Shown here: piece after piece, positions 28,054 through 36,382 of the stretch | Position numbering within the stretch: the first letter of the stretch is position 1 | Layout: each line of letters begins with the position of its first letter | NCBI GenBank assembly: GCA_947632485.1 | Contig: CANRPJ010000002.1 | Location: 1-64,000, forward strand | Reading direction: 5' to 3' | Length of the DNA stretch: 64,000 bases | Source of the DNA: an uncultured Muribaculaceae bacterium | GTDB taxonomy: Bacteria > Bacteroidota > Bacteroidia > Bacteroidales > Muribaculaceae | Made by a program: the position numbers and the translations under genes | Notes under the pieces: generated by a model | Databases searched by the model: none | The model's input: only the letters and a program-made list of their open reading frames with translations | Told to the model about the DNA's origin: nothing

Positions 28054-28394
28054 GGTGGATGAAAACGAAAGTGATTGCCACGAAGCTCGTGCCGGAAGGA
28101 CGCTTCGTGGCAATCACCTTATTCGGCCTCGTTTTCACCCGTGATAAGAAGTATATAAACCGCTATATGCTTAATCATGAGCTGATTCATTGCTGCCAGC
28201 AGCTCGAATGGCTCTACATTCCTTTCTATCTGCTCTATCTGGCGGAATGGCTCTGGCATCTGGCACGCCTCCGGTCATGGGACGCTGCTTACCGCGCCAT
28301 ATCATTCGAGCGCGAGGCTTACGCCCACGACCATGATCTGAACTATCTTGGCCATCGCCCGGTCTTTGCTAACTATCGCCGTCGGCAGCGGTAA
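28050..28394 (+). CDS. Small membrane-associated protein with an HExxH motif
   Basis: 114 aa; MLNHELIHCCQQLEWLYIPFYLLYLAEWLWHLA...ISFEREAYAHD. ATG 28050 overlaps the GH36 stop. Confidence 0.65.
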   Translation: MRWMKTKVIATKLVPEGRFVAITLFGLVFTRDKKYINRYMLNHELIHCCQQLEWLYIPFYLLYLAEWLWHLARLRSWDAAYRAISFEREAYAHDHDLNYLGHRPVFANYRRRQR

Positions 28395-30531
28395 GAAGGG
28401 CCATGCGCGCGGTGGTCTCGTCGAGTCTCGTTGCGGCATACTCCGCATTGAGCAGGCTATCGGGTAGGTAAGGATCGAATTTGCCGCGTTCCTTCTTCTT
28501 GCGGTTCACGTCCTTAGCCAGTTCCAGCCCTAATTCTCCCGCGGCCACGCCATCGGCATAGCGCCTCATCTGCTCTACCTGACCCGGATTCAGTCCGCTG
28601 ATAGCGAGATGATCGTAAGGAGGATTGATTCCAAGCACCTTGTCGGAGAGCATAGCCAGGGTGCGGTTGGCGCGCATGCCTCCCCACGTGAACCATACGC
28701 TCTCTCCGGTATCTGATATCCACGGCTGCTCGTCCAAGCCCCGGGCGCGATACCAGGCTCTCGCCTGAGCCAGGTGATCGGGAGTGCCCGTAGCCGCGTC
28801 GAGATAGGGATACTGCCCCTCGCCTTCGAGCACCCTCCGCATCTCGGCCGTAACAGCCGCCGAAGTCTCTATCCCGGTGCCCTCAAACATCATCTTCCCT
28901 TTCGCTACCGTGCGGCTCACATAGACCGTGGCCGAGCGCTCCTCCACTGAATCGACTATCCATTTCTCCCCGGCAAGAATGAACACCTCACCGTAATAGG
29001 GCTTGTATTGCACGCTCCCGACACTCTTTCGCGAGCTCTTCTCTATCACCGTATAGTCTTTGGCAGAAGTAAAGGCACTGAAGAAATCGCGCGAAGCAAG
29101 CAGCCGCTCGCTCTCAGGCCCCGGAGCAAGCTGTCCGCCGGAGAGCTGCACGATCACCCCTTTGCCTCCCAGATGGCGCAAGAGCCCTGCAAAAGCTGTC
29201 TCGCTTAGGAAAGAGAAGGCCCCTTCCGAGCAGAGTAACCGGTAAGCCTCAGCGGCATAGAAGCTGCCGCACTGCGAGAGAAGTGACACCAACTGCTGCA
29301 CGATTATCGACATGAACGCCTCCGGAGCCGGCGCCGAATCGAACTTACCGGAGCGCAGAAGCTCCACAACGGCTATATTCTGCACCAGATTGCTCCGGAG
29401 ATGAAACTTATAGTCGTCGCGCTCCTCATCTACGCTATAGAGGCGCAACGCCGCAGGAGCGCCTCTGCGGCCTGAACGGCCAAGACGCTGACGGAGCACG
29501 GAAGGAGAGCCAGCCGTGCCGATCTGAGCTACTGATTCTACTTTACCGATATCCACTCCCAGTTCCATCGATGCGGTGCAGATGGCGGTGACCGGGGTGC
29601 GCCCACGCTGCAATTCCTTCTCCACCTCCTCGCGGTCGCCGCCAGAGAGCGACCCGTGGTGGATCCGGAATTCATTGGGCACTCCGGCGGAGCGGCTCAG
29701 ATCGCCGAGCGTAACGGCATACGCTTCAGCATCTTTACGCGAGTTGGTAAATACCAGATTGTTAGAGCCGCGCAGCCTCCAGAAAAGTTCCTCGGCTATC
29801 TCCGGCTCCGGATTTACCGAAGCCGAAGCCACATATTCCTTCACCGCGATCGCCACTCCCTGCCTCGCCGACCCCGCATCCGGCGATGCGAAAGGCATCT
29901 CTCCTCCCGGCCTCAGAAAGCGCCGCGCGGCCTCCATATCGCCTAAAGTGGCGCTCAGGGCAATCCTCGGCACCCGTCTGCCCAACAATTGCTCCAGGCG
30001 CGCTAAAAGCGACTGCAGCTGCACTCCCCTCTCTGAGCTGAAGAAGGAGTGGAGCTCATCGATCACTACATAGTCAAGGTTCCTCACCGCATCGCGAAGC
30101 CATGACGGCCGCAGCGCAAACATAGCTTCAAGCGATTCGGGGGTGATCAGCAACACTCCTGAAGGACTGCGCGTCACGGCAGCCTTGCGCGAGGCCGCCA
30201 CATCGCCATGCCACGCCGCTATATCTACCGGTATATCCCTCGCCATCTCTTCCAGCCGCCGCTCCTGGTCGTTGATAAGCGCCTTCAGAGGGGAGATACA
30301 CAAGACCCGAAGCCCCGCCTTCTCGGAAGTCAGGATATGGGATAATATCGGAAGAAACGCCGCCTCAGTCTTTCCGCCCGCAGTAGGAGCGCTGATAATC
30401 ACGTCGGTATCAGCACGTAGTATCGGTTCTACCGCCTCGCGCTGCACCGGGCGCAGCTCCTCCCAGCCCTGCGCTCCTACCCAGCGCGCCACCCGCGGGT
30501 CAAGCCTCGATAATACTTCGGAATCCGTCAT
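28369..30531 (-). CDS. Lhr-like SF2 DEAD/DEAH-box helicase
   Basis: Motif I ISAPTAGGKTEAAFLP, motif II DYVVIDELHSF, motif III ALSATLG, motif VI VLRQRLGRSGRRG. Start chosen at ATG 30531 (MTDSEVLSRL). Confidence 0.9.
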   Translation of the reverse strand: MTDSEVLSRLDPRVARWVGAQGWEELRPVQREAVEPILRADTDVIISAPTAGGKTEAAFLPILSHILTSEKAGLRVLCISPLKALINDQERRLEEMARDIPVDIAAWHGDVAASRKAAVTRSPSGVLLITPESLEAMFALRPSWLRDAVRNLDYVVIDELHSFFSSERGVQLQSLLARLEQLLGRRVPRIALSATLGDMEAARRFLRPGGEMPFASPDAGSARQGVAIAVKEYVASASVNPEPEIAEELFWRLRGSNNLVFTNSRKDAEAYAVTLGDLSRSAGVPNEFRIHHGSLSGGDREEVEKELQRGRTPVTAICTASMELGVDIGKVESVAQIGTAGSPSVLRQRLGRSGRRGAPAALRLYSVDEERDDYKFHLRSNLVQNIAVVELLRSGKFDSAPAPEAFMSIIVQQLVSLLSQCGSFYAAEAYRLLCSEGAFSFLSETAFAGLLRHLGGKGVIVQLSGGQLAPGPESERLLASRDFFSAFTSAKDYTVIEKSSRKSVGSVQYKPYYGEVFILAGEKWIVDSVEERSATVYVSRTVAKGKMMFEGTGIETSAAVTAEMRRVLEGEGQYPYLDAATGTPDHLAQARAWYRARGLDEQPWISDTGESVWFTWGGMRANRTLAMLSDKVLGINPPYDHLAISGLNPGQVEQMRRYADGVAAGELGLELAKDVNRKKKERGKFDPYLPDSLLNAEYAATRLDETTARMALLTAADGDS

Positions 30532-30613
30532 GCTATAGAAACGCCCGCGCGCCCCGCGCGGTTTTATTCTCCCAAGCTCCAACTACCTGCCGCCTCCCGT
30601 CGTTATAACTTTG

Positions 30614-31729
30614 ATGAATAGCGACGATCTCATATTGACCCCTCTGCTCGATGAGCCTCTCGCTCCTTCCGCGCCGGTGCGGAAGGTTAAGCAAGCCCGC
30701 AGTGAGGAAGATGCTTTCCGCTCGCTCCTGCAGCCCACCCTTGCAGAGACCGATCAGGAGGGTTTCGCCGCTATGCGCTGGGGAGATCTCCTTGGCGCTG
30801 CGGCTGAGGCATTTGGCGCTACTACCGAGATGCTTGCCGATTCGCCATGGCTCGTGCGCCGCTATCTGCTGCGAGTAGGCCTGGCCTGCGCTCCCGATGC
30901 CATGTTGGAACGCCGGAAACTGAAACCAGCCGACTGGGTGATATTGTATCGCACTCAGGTGGATCCGCCGCTTATCCGCACAAGGGGCTACAAAAAGGCG
31001 CTCCTCTACGTGAAGTTCATAACTCTCGTGCTCCCCGACCTCTCACCCGCAGAACTGAAGGAGGCCGCCTCATTAGTGGCCACATGGGTAAAAAATGACC
31101 GCTACAGGCTCCATCTCGCCGCCCTCACCCGATGGTTCTCCCGCCGCAGGCGTCTTCTCGATGCCCGCACCGTCCGCACGGCACGGGAAATTCTCTCGCC
31201 AGAAGATTCAGCACGCATGCTCACCGCCCTGGCTCTCGCTGCCGGACGTCGCGGCCCCTTGCTGCCGCCCGCTTCTCTTGTGAAGCTTGAGAAGGTGGCC
31301 CGACTGCTCGGGGCTCCGGAGAGCGATCCTCACGCGCTGATTCACCGCGCTCTCTGCGGGCAACCGCTCATTCCCGATGAATCTGCCGGATCCGCTCTGG
31401 TCGATCCTAAGCTGCTCAACGAGGTGGCAGTGAGCACCGACCGCGCTCAGGAGTTGCTTTCCGAGGTGTTTGCTGAAAGCGACAATGAGATTCCGCCCTC
31501 GGAAGCCTCTTCCGAGGGCTCCACTGCCGCATTCCTGCGCCTTCTGCTATCGCGCCCGCAATGGACCATGCCGGAGCTCCAGCAGGCATGGGGCGACTCG
31601 CCGGGACGCGCCCTCGAAGCGGCCAACGACTTCGCGATTGAGCGCATTGGCGATACAGTGGCCGACCGCGAGGGAGATACTATCTACATAACCGAAGAAT
31701 ATAAAGACCTTTTGCTTTCAGCCGTATGA
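30614..31729 (+). CDS. TerB-like protein with candidate TerB-C-like C-terminus
   Basis: Helical core ARMLTALALAAGRRGPLLPPASLVKLEKVARLLGAPESD; C-terminal TMPELQQAWGDSPGRALEAANDFAIERIGDTVADREGDTIYITEEY. Stop overlaps the next ATG (ATGA). Confidence 0.65.
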   Translation: MNSDDLILTPLLDEPLAPSAPVRKVKQARSEEDAFRSLLQPTLAETDQEGFAAMRWGDLLGAAAEAFGATTEMLADSPWLVRRYLLRVGLACAPDAMLERRKLKPADWVILYRTQVDPPLIRTRGYKKALLYVKFITLVLPDLSPAELKEAASLVATWVKNDRYRLHLAALTRWFSRRRRLLDARTVRTAREILSPEDSARMLTALALAAGRRGPLLPPASLVKLEKVARLLGAPESDPHALIHRALCGQPLIPDESAGSALVDPKLLNEVAVSTDRAQELLSEVFAESDNEIPPSEASSEGSTAAFLRLLLSRPQWTMPELQQAWGDSPGRALEAANDFAIERIGDTVADREGDTIYITEEYKDLLLSAV

Positions 31730-33018
31730 ATACTCCTGCACAATCAGTTATCAAACCGCGCGACCGCGAGGCCGTGATCCGCGCCCTGCGCAGCGGCGTG
31801 GTGCCCGCCGTAGGCCTTCAGCATATTCAGGTAGGGCGCAGTAAAGAGATCGCCTCATTTCTGCGCGATATCGATATCGTGGCCGATGGCGGAAGCGCAT
31901 TCCGGATCGTGGCCGGAGAATACGGCAGCGGGAAGACTTTCTTCCTCTCCCTCGCCAGAAGTCTCGCCCTCGAGAAGGGGCTGCTGGCCATGAGCGCCGA
32001 CCTCTCGCCGGAAAAGCGCTTCCATGGCAGTCAGGGACAGCCGCGCCGGCTGCTGCGGGAGCTGATAACCTCGCTATCTACCCGCACCAAGCGCGACGGC
32101 AATGCCTTGCCGCTCCTGCTGGAGCACATCAACGGACGCGCTCAGGCTGAAGGAGTTTCACCGGCCAATCTGCTCGAACCTCTTATACATCTGCCCGGAG
32201 GCCACGACTTCCGCCGCATCGTGCTGATGGCCGCTGCCGGTGAAGGTCTGGAAAGCGAAGAGGCTCTGAAGTGGCTGCAAGCGGAGTTTGCTACCCGCAC
32301 TGACGCCTACCGGGCTGTAGGCGTGCGCCGTTTCCTCGGCGATGGCGACCTTGGCGCTACCCTCCGGCTCTTTGCGGCCCTCTCCCGCCTTGCCGGCTTC
32401 AAAGGTCTCTGGGTAGGAATCGATGAGCTCGTGAATCTCTACAAAATCACAAACGCACCGTCCCGAAAAGCCAACTACGAAGAAATTCTCTCACTCCTGA
32501 ACGCCACCCTTCAGGGCCACGCCGGAGGGCTCGGAATCGTGCTCGGATCAACCCCGGAAACCATTACCGACACCCGGCGCGGGCTTTACAGCTACGAAGC
32601 TCTCCGGTCGCGCCTCGCAGAAAATGCCCTCTCTGGCACTTCCGGACTCGCCGACTATGATTCAACAGTGCTCCGGTTGCCGAACCTGACCCGCGAAGAA
32701 CTCTTCGTGCTTCTGCAGCGCGTGCGCCGGCTGATTGCGTCAGGAGAACCCGAAATCATGCAGCGCGTGCCCGACGAGGCTCTCGAAGCCTTCATGCGCC
32801 ACTGCTTCAACCGTATCGGAGAAAGCTACTTCCGCACTCCGCGCAACACGCTCAAGGCCTTCATCGACCTGCTCTCACTGCTCCGCCAGTACCCCGACCG
32901 GACATGGCAGTCATTGCTCCCCGGAGTAGGTATTACCCCTGACCTTCAGGCCTCGCCACTGACCGCGCTACTGACCGCGCCTGAATCTACCTCCGACCTT
33001 ACCCACTTCACCCTCTGA
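31726..33018 (+). CDS. BrxD/DUF2791-like P-loop ATPase
   Basis: RDREAVIRALRSGVVPAVGLQHIQVGRSKEI, Walker A VAGEYGSGKTFFLS, Walker B GLWVGIDELVNLYKI, LGSTPE sensor-like motif. Confidence 0.8.
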   Translation: MNTPAQSVIKPRDREAVIRALRSGVVPAVGLQHIQVGRSKEIASFLRDIDIVADGGSAFRIVAGEYGSGKTFFLSLARSLALEKGLLAMSADLSPEKRFHGSQGQPRRLLRELITSLSTRTKRDGNALPLLLEHINGRAQAEGVSPANLLEPLIHLPGGHDFRRIVLMAAAGEGLESEEALKWLQAEFATRTDAYRAVGVRRFLGDGDLGATLRLFAALSRLAGFKGLWVGIDELVNLYKITNAPSRKANYEEILSLLNATLQGHAGGLGIVLGSTPETITDTRRGLYSYEALRSRLAENALSGTSGLADYDSTVLRLPNLTREELFVLLQRVRRLIASGEPEIMQRVPDEALEAFMRHCFNRIGESYFRTPRNTLKAFIDLLSLLRQYPDRTWQSLLPGVGITPDLQASPLTALLTAPESTSDLTHFTL

Positions 33019-33432: not shown

Positions 33433-33440
33433 TAACTTTG
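33433..33440 (+). promoter_or_regulatory. Candidate -7 box upstream of the SusC gene
   Basis: TAACTTTG at 33433-33440 with a near-match -33 (TTTC at 33411, 18-nt spacer). Confidence 0.4.
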
Positions 33441-33569
33441 GCGCGAAAAGTGATTGTCTCTTACATAGAGAGCCTCATTTTTCTTTATGAATTAACCTTC
33501 TTCTTTCGTCTTTATCGGTCTCGGGCGGGAGGGGATATGAGTAATACTGAGACCGCTCAAAGTCTAATC

Positions 33570-36382
33570 ATGAGAAAACTTTTTCTGATTCTGATGACGA
33601 TGGCAGCATGCGCGTGGGGGCTGCAGGCCCAGACGCGCACTATCAGCGGCACCGTGCTCGATGCAGCTGACAATGAGCCGCTCGTCGGAGCCACGATTGC
33701 TCCGATCGGCGGTGGCCAGGGTGCGGCAGCCGACATCGACGGCAAGTTCACCATCAAGGTGCCCGCCAACGTCACCAAAGCGAAGGTGTCCTATGTTGGA
33801 TACGAGACGCAGACCGTCGACCTCAAGGACGGAAGCGCGGTAAGCGCGGTGACGCCCGTGTGACGGTTGACATGAAGTGGGGTGCCAACTCCCGCGCGAC
33901 CCCATACTATGACGTACTGGAGACGGCTGAGGATTATCTTGGTGTAGCTTACAAGGCTCTGCGTAACGGCGCAATGCTCGGTATGGGTTACACTGCTGAT
34001 GCAGCCCACGATTATGCTAACAAGCAGCTTTTCGGTCCTTCCGGTATCGGCTATCAGATCTATACTCTCCCTGAGGGCGAAAACTTCATTCTGCCTGACG
34101 GAAGCGTAAACAAGAATGCAGTGCTCGGCTACAATGACGGCACCAACTACTTCATTCCTGACGATTGGAAGAAGTATACGCTGCGCAACGGTATGCGTCA
34201 GGAGTATAACGTAAACGTAAGCGGCGCAACCGAGAAGATCAATTACTACATCTCCGGTGGTTATGTAGATGATCAGGGTCTTATCAACAACTCTGACTAT
34301 AAGCGTCTGAGCGTTCGTACGAGCGTAGACTATCAGGTTAAGCCCTGGCTGAAGGTCGGCTCCAACGTGACTTATACTCACTCTGAGCAGAACTATCCCG
34401 GCGATCAGATCAACTCCGGTTCTACCGGCAACGCCTTCATGATGGCCTATTCGCAGGCACCGGTTTACCCGATGTTCGTACGCGACGCCGAGGGCAACAT
34501 CATGTTTAATGAAACGTGGGGTCACCCCGTATATGACTACGGTCAGGCTCAGACAGCCTTTACCCGTCCTTCCGCTGCTAACCCGGGTGCTAACCCCGTG
34601 TCGAACCTTCTCTATGACAAGGTAGAGAGCCTCACCGACATTATCAACGGCAAGTGGATGTTGGAGCTCAAACCGGTTGAGGGTCTTACGATTACCGGCA
34701 ACGCTTCGCTCAACCTCGAGTACGGGCGCGGTCACAACACCCAGAACCCGCTCTACGGTTATTCTGCAGCTTACGGCGGCTATGTAGGCATGAGCGACAA
34801 CCGCTACCGCATGCTTACTCTCCAGGCTCTTGCCAACTACCGCAAGACCTTCGCTGACAAGCACACCATCGACCTTCTCGCTGGTTACGAGCAGTATGAG
34901 TACAATATTGAGTACCTCAGCGCAAGCGGTAACAACCCCTACCGTAAACTCGGTTGGGCCGTTGACAACACGCTCAACAATGACAGCCGCTCCGGTGGTG
35001 GTTCTTCTGATAACTACGCTACCCGCGGTATCTTCTTCCGTGCCAACTACGACTTCGAGAGCCGCTACTTCTTCAGCGGATCGTTCCGTCGCGACGGTAG
35101 CTCACGCTTCCACCCATCTCACCGTTGGGGTAACTTCTTCTCCATCTCCGGTGCATGGGACGTGGCTAAGGAGAACTTCATGGAAGGCGTTCACGAATGG
35201 CTCAACCAGTTGAAGCTCCGCGCCAGCTTCGGTCAGCAGGGTAACGACGGTATCGGCGGCTGGTACGCATGGGCAGACCAGTACACCATCTCCGGTGAAA
35301 GTGCATGGAACGACGGTGCTCTGAGCTACAAGGGTAACAAGGACATCACCTGGGAGACCTCTAACAACTTCAACGTAGGTCTCGACTTCGTGCTCTGGAA
35401 CAATAAGGTGTTCGGTACTCTCGAATACTTCTCGCGCCAGACCTCCGATATGCTCTACTATCGTCCTGTAGCTCCTTCGTTGGGCTATAGCTCGATTCCG
35501 ATGAACGTAGGCTCGATCCGCAACAGCGGTGTCGAACTGGAACTTACCTACACCCCGATCCGTACGAAGGATCTCGAGTGGAGCATCAACGGCAACCTTA
35601 CCTACATCAACTCGAAGGTGCTTAAACTCGCTCCCGAACTCGGCGGCTGGTGGCAGACTGCCTCCAACGTATATATCGAGGGTGAGTCGATGTATCAGTG
35701 GTATCTCGTAGAATTCGCAGGTATCGATCCTACCAGCGGTCGTCCCCTCTACTGGCAGTGGGACTGGATGAAGAATGCCGATGGCACAGATATGCTGGAT
35801 AAGCATGGTCAGAGGATTCCTGATATGTCTACTAAGCGTGCTTCTACTTCATACAATAGCGAGTATCGCATCAAGCAGGGCAACTCTCTGCCTCCTGTAT
35901 ACGGTGGCTTCGGCACCAACCTGAGCTGGAAGGGTATCGATTTCGGTATCTCCTTCGGTTACCAGATCGGTGGCAAGGTTATGGACTATGGCTACATGAA
36001 CCATATCAACGCCGGTACTTCCTCTGCAATGGGTCGCAACTGGTCGGTTGATATCCTCAACGCCTGGACTCCTGAGAATCCTTATACTGTGATCCCGCGT
36101 CTCAACAACACCGAGAGCCAGTATAATATCGGTTCTACCAACTACTTCATGGCTGATGCAAGCTATCTTGCACTCAACAACATCACGCTGGGCTACACCC
36201 TGCCGCAGAACTGGACGCGCAAGATCAAACTCGAGAGCGTACGCATCTACGGCGCTGCTGACAACGTAGCTCTCTGGAGCGCACGCAAGGGTCTCGACCC
36301 GCGTCAGGGCTACTGGAGCTCTAACGCTACTACCTACACCGGTATGCGTTGTATCTCCGGCGGTGTGAAAGTCGTATTCTAA
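33570..36382 (+). pseudogene. SusC/RagA-family TonB-dependent receptor with internal deletion of the plug region and frame break
   Basis: Frame 1 (33570..33863) encodes signal peptide and CarboxypepD_reg-like domain up to YVGYETQTVDLKDGS then stops. The other frame resumes as KRGDARVTVDMKWGANSRATPYYDVLETAEDYLG with the full SusC barrel to 36382. Junction at a 9-bp tandem repeat. Confidence 0.85.

What the first reader, a model, noticed from the sequence alone, without database searches (positions are those of the whole stretch)
28369..33018. Candidate DNA-processing/anti-phage module: Lhr-like helicase, TerB-like protein and BrxD-like ATPase
Seen in sequence: an SF2 helicase with motifs APTAGGKT, DELH, SAT and QRLGRSGRR sits head-to-head with two genes joined by an ATGA stop-start overlap. 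The first resembles TerB (LTALALAAGRRGPLLPPASLVKLEKVARLLG) with a TerB-C-like tail. The second is a P-loop ATPase (GEYGSGKT, GIDELVNLY) resembling DUF2791/BrxD. Established knowledge, from memory: BrxD plus an Lhr-like helicase occur in some BREX types, and TerB-N/TerB-C proteins with helicase and ATPase genes were predicted as Ter-linked DNA-processing systems. Inference: this is a compact three-gene version with no PglZ, BrxC, methyltransferase or nuclease visible, so its effector logic is unclear. The TerB-like protein is only 372 aa and may be a reduced form.
Basis: partly seen in the sequence, partly recalled or inferred. Interest (0 to 1): 0.75.

Follow-up and report, generated by a model that had tools for sequence, protein, structure and literature searches.

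The report
Shango defence variant with reduced SngA
The three genes are a divergent, stripped-down version of Shango, a known bacterial anti-phage system; in related bacteria the same three genes have drifted apart around the chromosome yet all are kept, so neighbour-based searches would probably overlook them.

Summary
The trio matches the published anti-phage system Shango: SngC helicase (E=3e-206), SngB BrxD-like ATPase (E=1.5e-129), SngA TerB-domain protein (E=9e-17, C-terminal part only). It is not BREX: PF10923 occurs once in the genome and no other defence gene was found among the window proteins scanned.

It is, however, not a standard Shango. With five relatives from three other genera of the same Bacteroidales family it forms its own clade, sister to ordinary Bacteroidales Shango, in both the SngB and SngC trees (support 100). 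In this clade SngA is only the C-terminal 45% of the canonical protein: TerB_N and the N-terminal membrane segment are gone. SngC is divergent from SngA-SngB (window, G131) or on a different contig (G012, G056, G168, G176); in G176 all three genes lie on different contigs, beside housekeeping genes. The unlinked SngB and SngC keep their motifs and are under strong purifying selection (dN/dS 0.01-0.07). GC is native (55-60%), whereas canonical Shango in the same family is 33-36%. Distribution is sporadic (SngB in 8 of 397 family genomes).

Verdict: a new variant of a known system. Anti-phage activity of this lineage is untested.

The parts
28369..30531 (-). sngC: Lhr/BrxHI-like SF2 helicase, 720 aa from the ATG at 30531 (the ORF opens with TTG at 30582)
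   Evidence: PADLOC SngC E=3.3e-206 over positions 3-713/720; helicase motifs conserved across the clade
30532..30613 (.). 82-bp divergent intergenic region with a GC-rich inverted repeat (30545-30561) followed by a T-rich run on the + strand; no confident promoter
   Evidence: terminator-like hits in the region do not exceed shuffles
30614..31729 (+). sngA, short form: TerB-like region plus TerB_C, 371 aa, without TerB_N and without an N-terminal membrane segment
   Evidence: PADLOC SngA E=9e-17, model positions 334-523/528; profile alignment of the short clade to canonical SngA columns 474-846/855, E=6e-37; no hydrophobic N-terminus
31726..33018 (+). sngB: BrxD-family P-loop ATPase, 430 aa, ATGA overlap with sngA
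   Evidence: PADLOC SngB E=1.5e-129 over positions 4-423/439; PF10923 8.1e-115; Walker A GEYGSGKT and IDELVNLY intact

Best explanation
The trio is a divergent chromosomal lineage of the anti-phage system Shango. Shown here: homology of all three genes; a separate well-supported clade in one Bacteroidales family; loss of the TerB_N half and of the membrane segment of SngA; loss of strict gene linkage in relatives; purifying selection on the unlinked genes; native base composition. Inferred mechanism: SngB (a BrxD-type AAA+ ATPase) engages DNA and, with SngA as adaptor (its TerB_C end has winged-helix topology in the predicted model), positions or licenses the Lhr-like translocase SngC on invading or replicating phage DNA. 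SngC then uses ATP to strip or unwind it and block replication without cutting. In ordinary Shango the SngA N-terminus would tether this to the membrane and carry a sensing or gating part. In this lineage the machine would be cytosolic, with recognition left to the SngA core and SngB.
For: Identity. Published Shango is a TerB protein, ATPase and helicase with 10-100-fold effects on plating, PMC10250203. Clade: SngB and SngC trees, support 100. SngA reduction: Pfam, genome-wide absence of TerB_N, hhalign E=6e-37, hydropathy. Dispersal: SngC on other contigs in four genomes, SngA on a third contig in G176, neighbours read. Selection and motifs: dN/dS 0.012-0.068 for SngB and SngC. Composition. 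Sporadic distribution. Model: mean pLDDT 80, C-terminal H-E-H-H-E-E order, weak MarR/IclR matches.
Against: No experiment on this lineage exists, and no mechanism was found for Shango itself in the papers searched. The window locus has no defence neighbours, sits among polysaccharide-use genes, and its relatives lie beside housekeeping genes. The window SngB has a long branch and changed residues near the ATPase site (GSTPETI for SGTPEFL), so this copy could be drifting or shifted in function. The Foldseek matches are not significant (none with E below 0.001). No DNA-target evidence was obtained.
Confidence: 0.72

Rival explanations
1. Domesticated Shango: the three genes no longer act mainly against phages but serve a chromosomal DNA-maintenance role (for example replication-fork or plasmid surveillance), which is why linkage, the membrane segment and TerB_N were dropped and the genes sit beside housekeeping genes with native GC.
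For: Unlinked genes retained under dN/dS 0.01-0.07; native GC against 33-36% for canonical Shango in the same family; no mobile or defence neighbours found.
Against: Very sporadic: SngB found in no other sampled genome of the window's genus and in 2 of 49 of genus g4, unlike a housekeeping function; the SngA core is the fastest-changing part between G012 and G056 (dN 0.16-0.18), as for a component under outside pressure.
Confidence: 0.25
2. A BREX remnant (BrxD plus BrxHI-type helicase) that lost the other BREX genes.
For: SngC also matches PADLOC BrxHI (E=4e-120) and SngB matches BrxD (E=1e-38).
Against: The Shango models score far higher for both (685 against 400 bits; 431 against 131 bits); SngB is far below the NCBIfam BrxD cut-off (131 against 350); the only PF10923 protein in the genome is this one, so no BrxC was found; BREX has no SngA.
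Confidence: 0.02
3. A decaying, non-functional Shango remnant in the window genome.
For: Long window SngB branch; truncated SngA; no near relative of the window copy with which to measure selection.
Against: Three full open frames with intact ATPase and helicase motifs; the same SngA reduction is shared by five genomes of four genera at 36-42% identity to the window, so it is ancestral and not decay; purifying selection in sister lineages.
Confidence: 0.07

Closest known systems
Shango (SngA-SngB-SngC), described in P. aeruginosa PA14 and in E. coli (PMC10250203 and the E. coli report it cites)
   Same: Homologous helicase, BrxD-family ATPase and TerB/TerB_C protein; no nuclease or methylase
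   Different: SngA lacks TerB_N and the membrane segment (371 aa against about 570-1160 aa in the canonical proteins read here); SngC inverted or unlinked instead of following SngB on the same strand; native GC; no defence island
Canonical Bacteroidales Shango (Alistipes L049, L053, L054; same family G015, G355)
   Same: Sister clade, SngB about 51-55% identical; SngA-SngB start-stop overlap
   Different: Linked SngA-B-C on one strand, long and usually membrane-anchored SngA, low GC (33-36% in the same family)
Mini-SngA Shango of Bacteroidales MAGs (L043, L044, L045, L051)
   Same: Also a reduced SngA that ends in TerB_C
   Different: Keeps an N-terminal membrane segment but loses the TerB region (182-228 aa); genes stay linked on one strand; belongs to the canonical clade by SngB and SngC
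BREX BrxD and BrxHI/BrxHII
   Same: ATPase and helicase families
   Different: No PglZ, BrxC or methyltransferase; far lower scores than to Shango models

Membership tests
Shango | SngC-type helicase | tested here: met
   PADLOC SngC E=3.3e-206, whole length
Shango | SngB-type ATPase | tested here: met
   PADLOC SngB E=1.5e-129, whole length
Shango | TerB-type SngA protein | tested here: met
   PADLOC SngA E=9e-17; TerB_C over its cut-off; profile alignment to canonical SngA E=6e-37. No Pfam TerB (PF05099) hit.
Shango | Full SngA with TerB_N (typical: in all six canonical SngA tested; not stated as definitional) | tested here: not met
   No TerB_N in SngA nor over the cut-off anywhere in the genome
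Shango | Three adjacent genes on one strand (typical layout, not stated as definitional) | tested here: not met
   SngC is divergent in the window and unlinked in four relatives
Shango | Anti-phage activity | not testable with these tools
   Needs plating assays
BREX | PglZ and BrxC present | tested here: not met
   Only one PF10923 protein in the genome; no BREX gene among 20 other window proteins scanned
BREX | ATPase reaches the BrxD cut-off | tested here: not met
   130.8 bits against a cut-off of 350

The most novel reading that the evidence does not exclude
A domesticated Shango: a cytosolic helicase-ATPase-TerB machine, derived from an anti-phage system, that one Bacteroidales family keeps as three often unlinked chromosomal genes in native composition, working as a trans-assembled cellular function (or as a dispersed immune system) that neighbour-based defence finders would miss.
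Probability: 0.3. Interest if true: 0.65.

Novelty: new variant of a known kind. Interest (0 to 1): 0.48.

Why it matters
Defence systems are found and annotated by gene neighbourhood and by model coverage; a lineage whose genes are scattered and whose SngA covers about a third of its model would probably be missed. The natural deletion shows that TerB_N and the membrane segment are dispensable for whatever keeps the trio under selection, which narrows the SngA core to TerB plus TerB_C and offers a soluble, smaller system for biochemistry on Shango, for which no mechanism was found in the papers searched.

Tried and rejected
BREX remnant: rejected on model scores and absence of BrxC. Detached TerB_N elsewhere in the genome: none over the cut-off. 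Homologues in phage records: none. Solved relatives by sequence: none for SngA or SngB; only general SF2 and Lhr helicases for SngC. Insertion site by flanking DNA in the genus: inconclusive, because the genus is divergent and synteny is not kept. Wider order: 393 genomes gave no further member of the clade, only 38-44% identical ATPases. SngA in G168: not found; its expected site next to the ferredoxin oxidoreductase genes lies beyond a contig end. Foldseek against PDB: no significant match, only weak winged-helix hints. Promoters: nothing convincing. Relatives' proteins obtained by the fetch from genomes were not sent to structure prediction, because its stated rule does not list that source; canonical SngAs from the search for related loci were used instead (A3). 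Not tested: whether SngC or short SngA occur in genomes without SngB.

Full report
1. Observation. Gene 28369-30582 (-) carries the SF2 helicase motifs; its likely start is the ATG at 30531. Gene 30614-31729 (+) and gene 31726-33018 (+) overlap by ATGA. Pfam gives DEAD and Helicase_C for the first, TerB_C (6.6e-08) for the second and BrxC_BrxD PF10923 (8e-115) for the third.

2. Identity. Against PADLOC the best models are SngC (E=3.3e-206), SngA (9e-17) and SngB (1.5e-129), well ahead of BrxHI (4e-120) and BrxD (1e-38). Shango is described as a three-gene system with TerB, helicase and ATPase parts; in P. aeruginosa it reduces plating of many phages 10-100-fold, and it was also reported from E. 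coli (PMC10250203). PF10923 occurs once in the 2.6 Mb, 99.8% complete genome, so no BrxC was found and this is not BREX. Twenty other window proteins gave no defence match; the neighbours are an alpha-galactosidase (GH36), SusC/SusD-type genes and a sigma/anti-sigma pair.

3. Distribution. SngB was found in 8 of 397 genomes sampled from the family: in the window's genus only in the window genome itself, in 2 of 49 genomes of genus g4 and in 2 of 3 of genus g13. In 393 genomes of the order, the other matches were only 38-44% identical. Many plasmids of other phyla carry SngB relatives (691 records); 50,697 phage records carry none. This is the patchy pattern of a defence or accessory system, not of a core gene.

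4. A separate clade. Trees of SngB and SngC, built with FastTree and with IQ-TREE under a mixture model, both put the window with G131, G012, G056, G168 and G176 as one clade of support 100, against all canonical Bacteroidales Shango, including those of G015 and G355 from the same family. Inside the clade both FastTree trees show the same order, but SngB support there is low, so no claim of vertical descent is made.

5. Reduced SngA. All six canonical SngA proteins tested carry TerB_N; none of the four short-clade proteins tested does. TerB_N is over its cut-off nowhere in the six short-clade genomes. Profile-profile alignment places short SngA on columns 474-846 of 855 of canonical SngA, E=6e-37. 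Five of six full-length SngAs from the canonical Bacteroidales-type clade, all four mini forms and four of six proteobacterial ones begin with a strongly hydrophobic segment (mean hydropathy above 2 over 19 residues); none of the five short-clade proteins has one anywhere. So the membrane segment is gone as well. The acidic motif in the TerB region of Salmonella and Klebsiella SngA (CSDGRITPAEI in Salmonella) is not present in the short clade (AAGRRGPLLPPASL in the window); that this abolishes metal binding is inference. An AlphaFold2 model of the window SngA has mean pLDDT 80; its last 70 residues run H-E-H-H-E-E, the winged-helix order, with only weak PDB matches to MarR- and IclR-type proteins.

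6. Gene dispersal. Window and G131: SngC divergent from SngA-SngB, with no shared flanking genes. G012 and G056: short SngA and SngB together beside rimO and ftsY, and SngC on another contig beside aspS. G168 and G176: SngB beside rubrerythrin and aroQ, SngC on another contig; in G176 SngA is on a third contig. From contig lengths and positions the separation of SngB and SngC is at least about 30 kb in G168, 23 kb in G012, 18 kb in G056 and 15 kb in G176. Within each pair of genomes the same neighbours recur, which argues against chance misassembly. In G168 the SngA site falls beyond a contig end. G102, the nearest sampled relative in the RpoB tree, has no SngA at the corresponding site. The names of neighbouring housekeeping genes rest on reading the translations, not on a database scan.

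7. Selection and composition. dN/dS between G168 and G176 is 0.02-0.06 for SngB and SngC; between G012 and G056 it is 0.01-0.07 for SngB and SngC and 0.05-0.12 for SngA; Walker and helicase motifs are intact in every member. Short-clade genes have 55-60% GC, equal to or above their flanks; canonical Shango of the same family (G015, G355) has 33-36% against 51-56% in the flanks. The window trio is among the most GC-rich stretches of the window. The canonical form looks recently acquired and the short form resident; that reading is inference.

8. Mechanism. Shown: protein families, retained ATPase motifs, lost SngA half, retention without linkage. Inferred: SngB and SngA load or license SngC on foreign or replicating DNA, and ATP-driven translocation blocks it without cutting. 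No paper in the searches made here explained how Shango works. The main rival is domestication to a cellular DNA role; sporadic occurrence argues against it, native composition and dispersal for it.

9. Standing. A new variant of a known kind. By the three-gene definition it belongs to Shango, but two typical features, full SngA and one-strand linkage, were tested and not met, so it is filed as a divergent Shango lineage and not as a standard Shango.

Noticed in passing
window 33438-36382: A SusC-type TonB receptor is split between two frames (CarboxypepD_reg part 33438-33863; 840-aa part 33860-36382) while relatives in the genus have about 1070-1090 aa in one frame; part of the plug domain seems missing.
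   Followed up: partly
L043 7453-8004, L044 7306-7992, L045 7456-8004, L051 5148-5786: Mini-SngA: a membrane segment plus TerB_C only (182-228 aa), directly before SngB, with no TerB_N gene seen upstream; a second, different reduction of SngA.
   Followed up: partly
L064 (Klebsiella plasmid NZ_OP378655.1) 7299-8171: SngC is cut to about 290 aa, followed by a blaTEM-1 region; 452 Klebsiella plasmid records match SngB, so a broken Shango may be common on resistance plasmids. Only one record was read.
   Followed up: partly
L062 (Yoonia plasmid NZ_CP021432.1) 1145-5005: SngA is interrupted by an IS3-family transposase gene that separates the TerB_N part from the TerB_C part.
   Followed up: no
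L040 6509-7771 and L041 8957-10303: Low-complexity repeats (SENSENSEN; GNTGNTGNPGNP) in the SngA linker before TerB_C, different in the two species, suggesting short tandem DNA repeats expanding inside the gene.
   Followed up: no
window 30545-30561: A perfect 7-bp all-GC inverted repeat followed by a T-rich run in the short divergent region between sngC and sngA.
   Followed up: no
window 31726-33018: The window SngB has a much longer branch than its relatives (0.5-0.6) and GSTPETI in place of SGTPEFL, suggesting faster evolution or a shift in this species.
   Followed up: no
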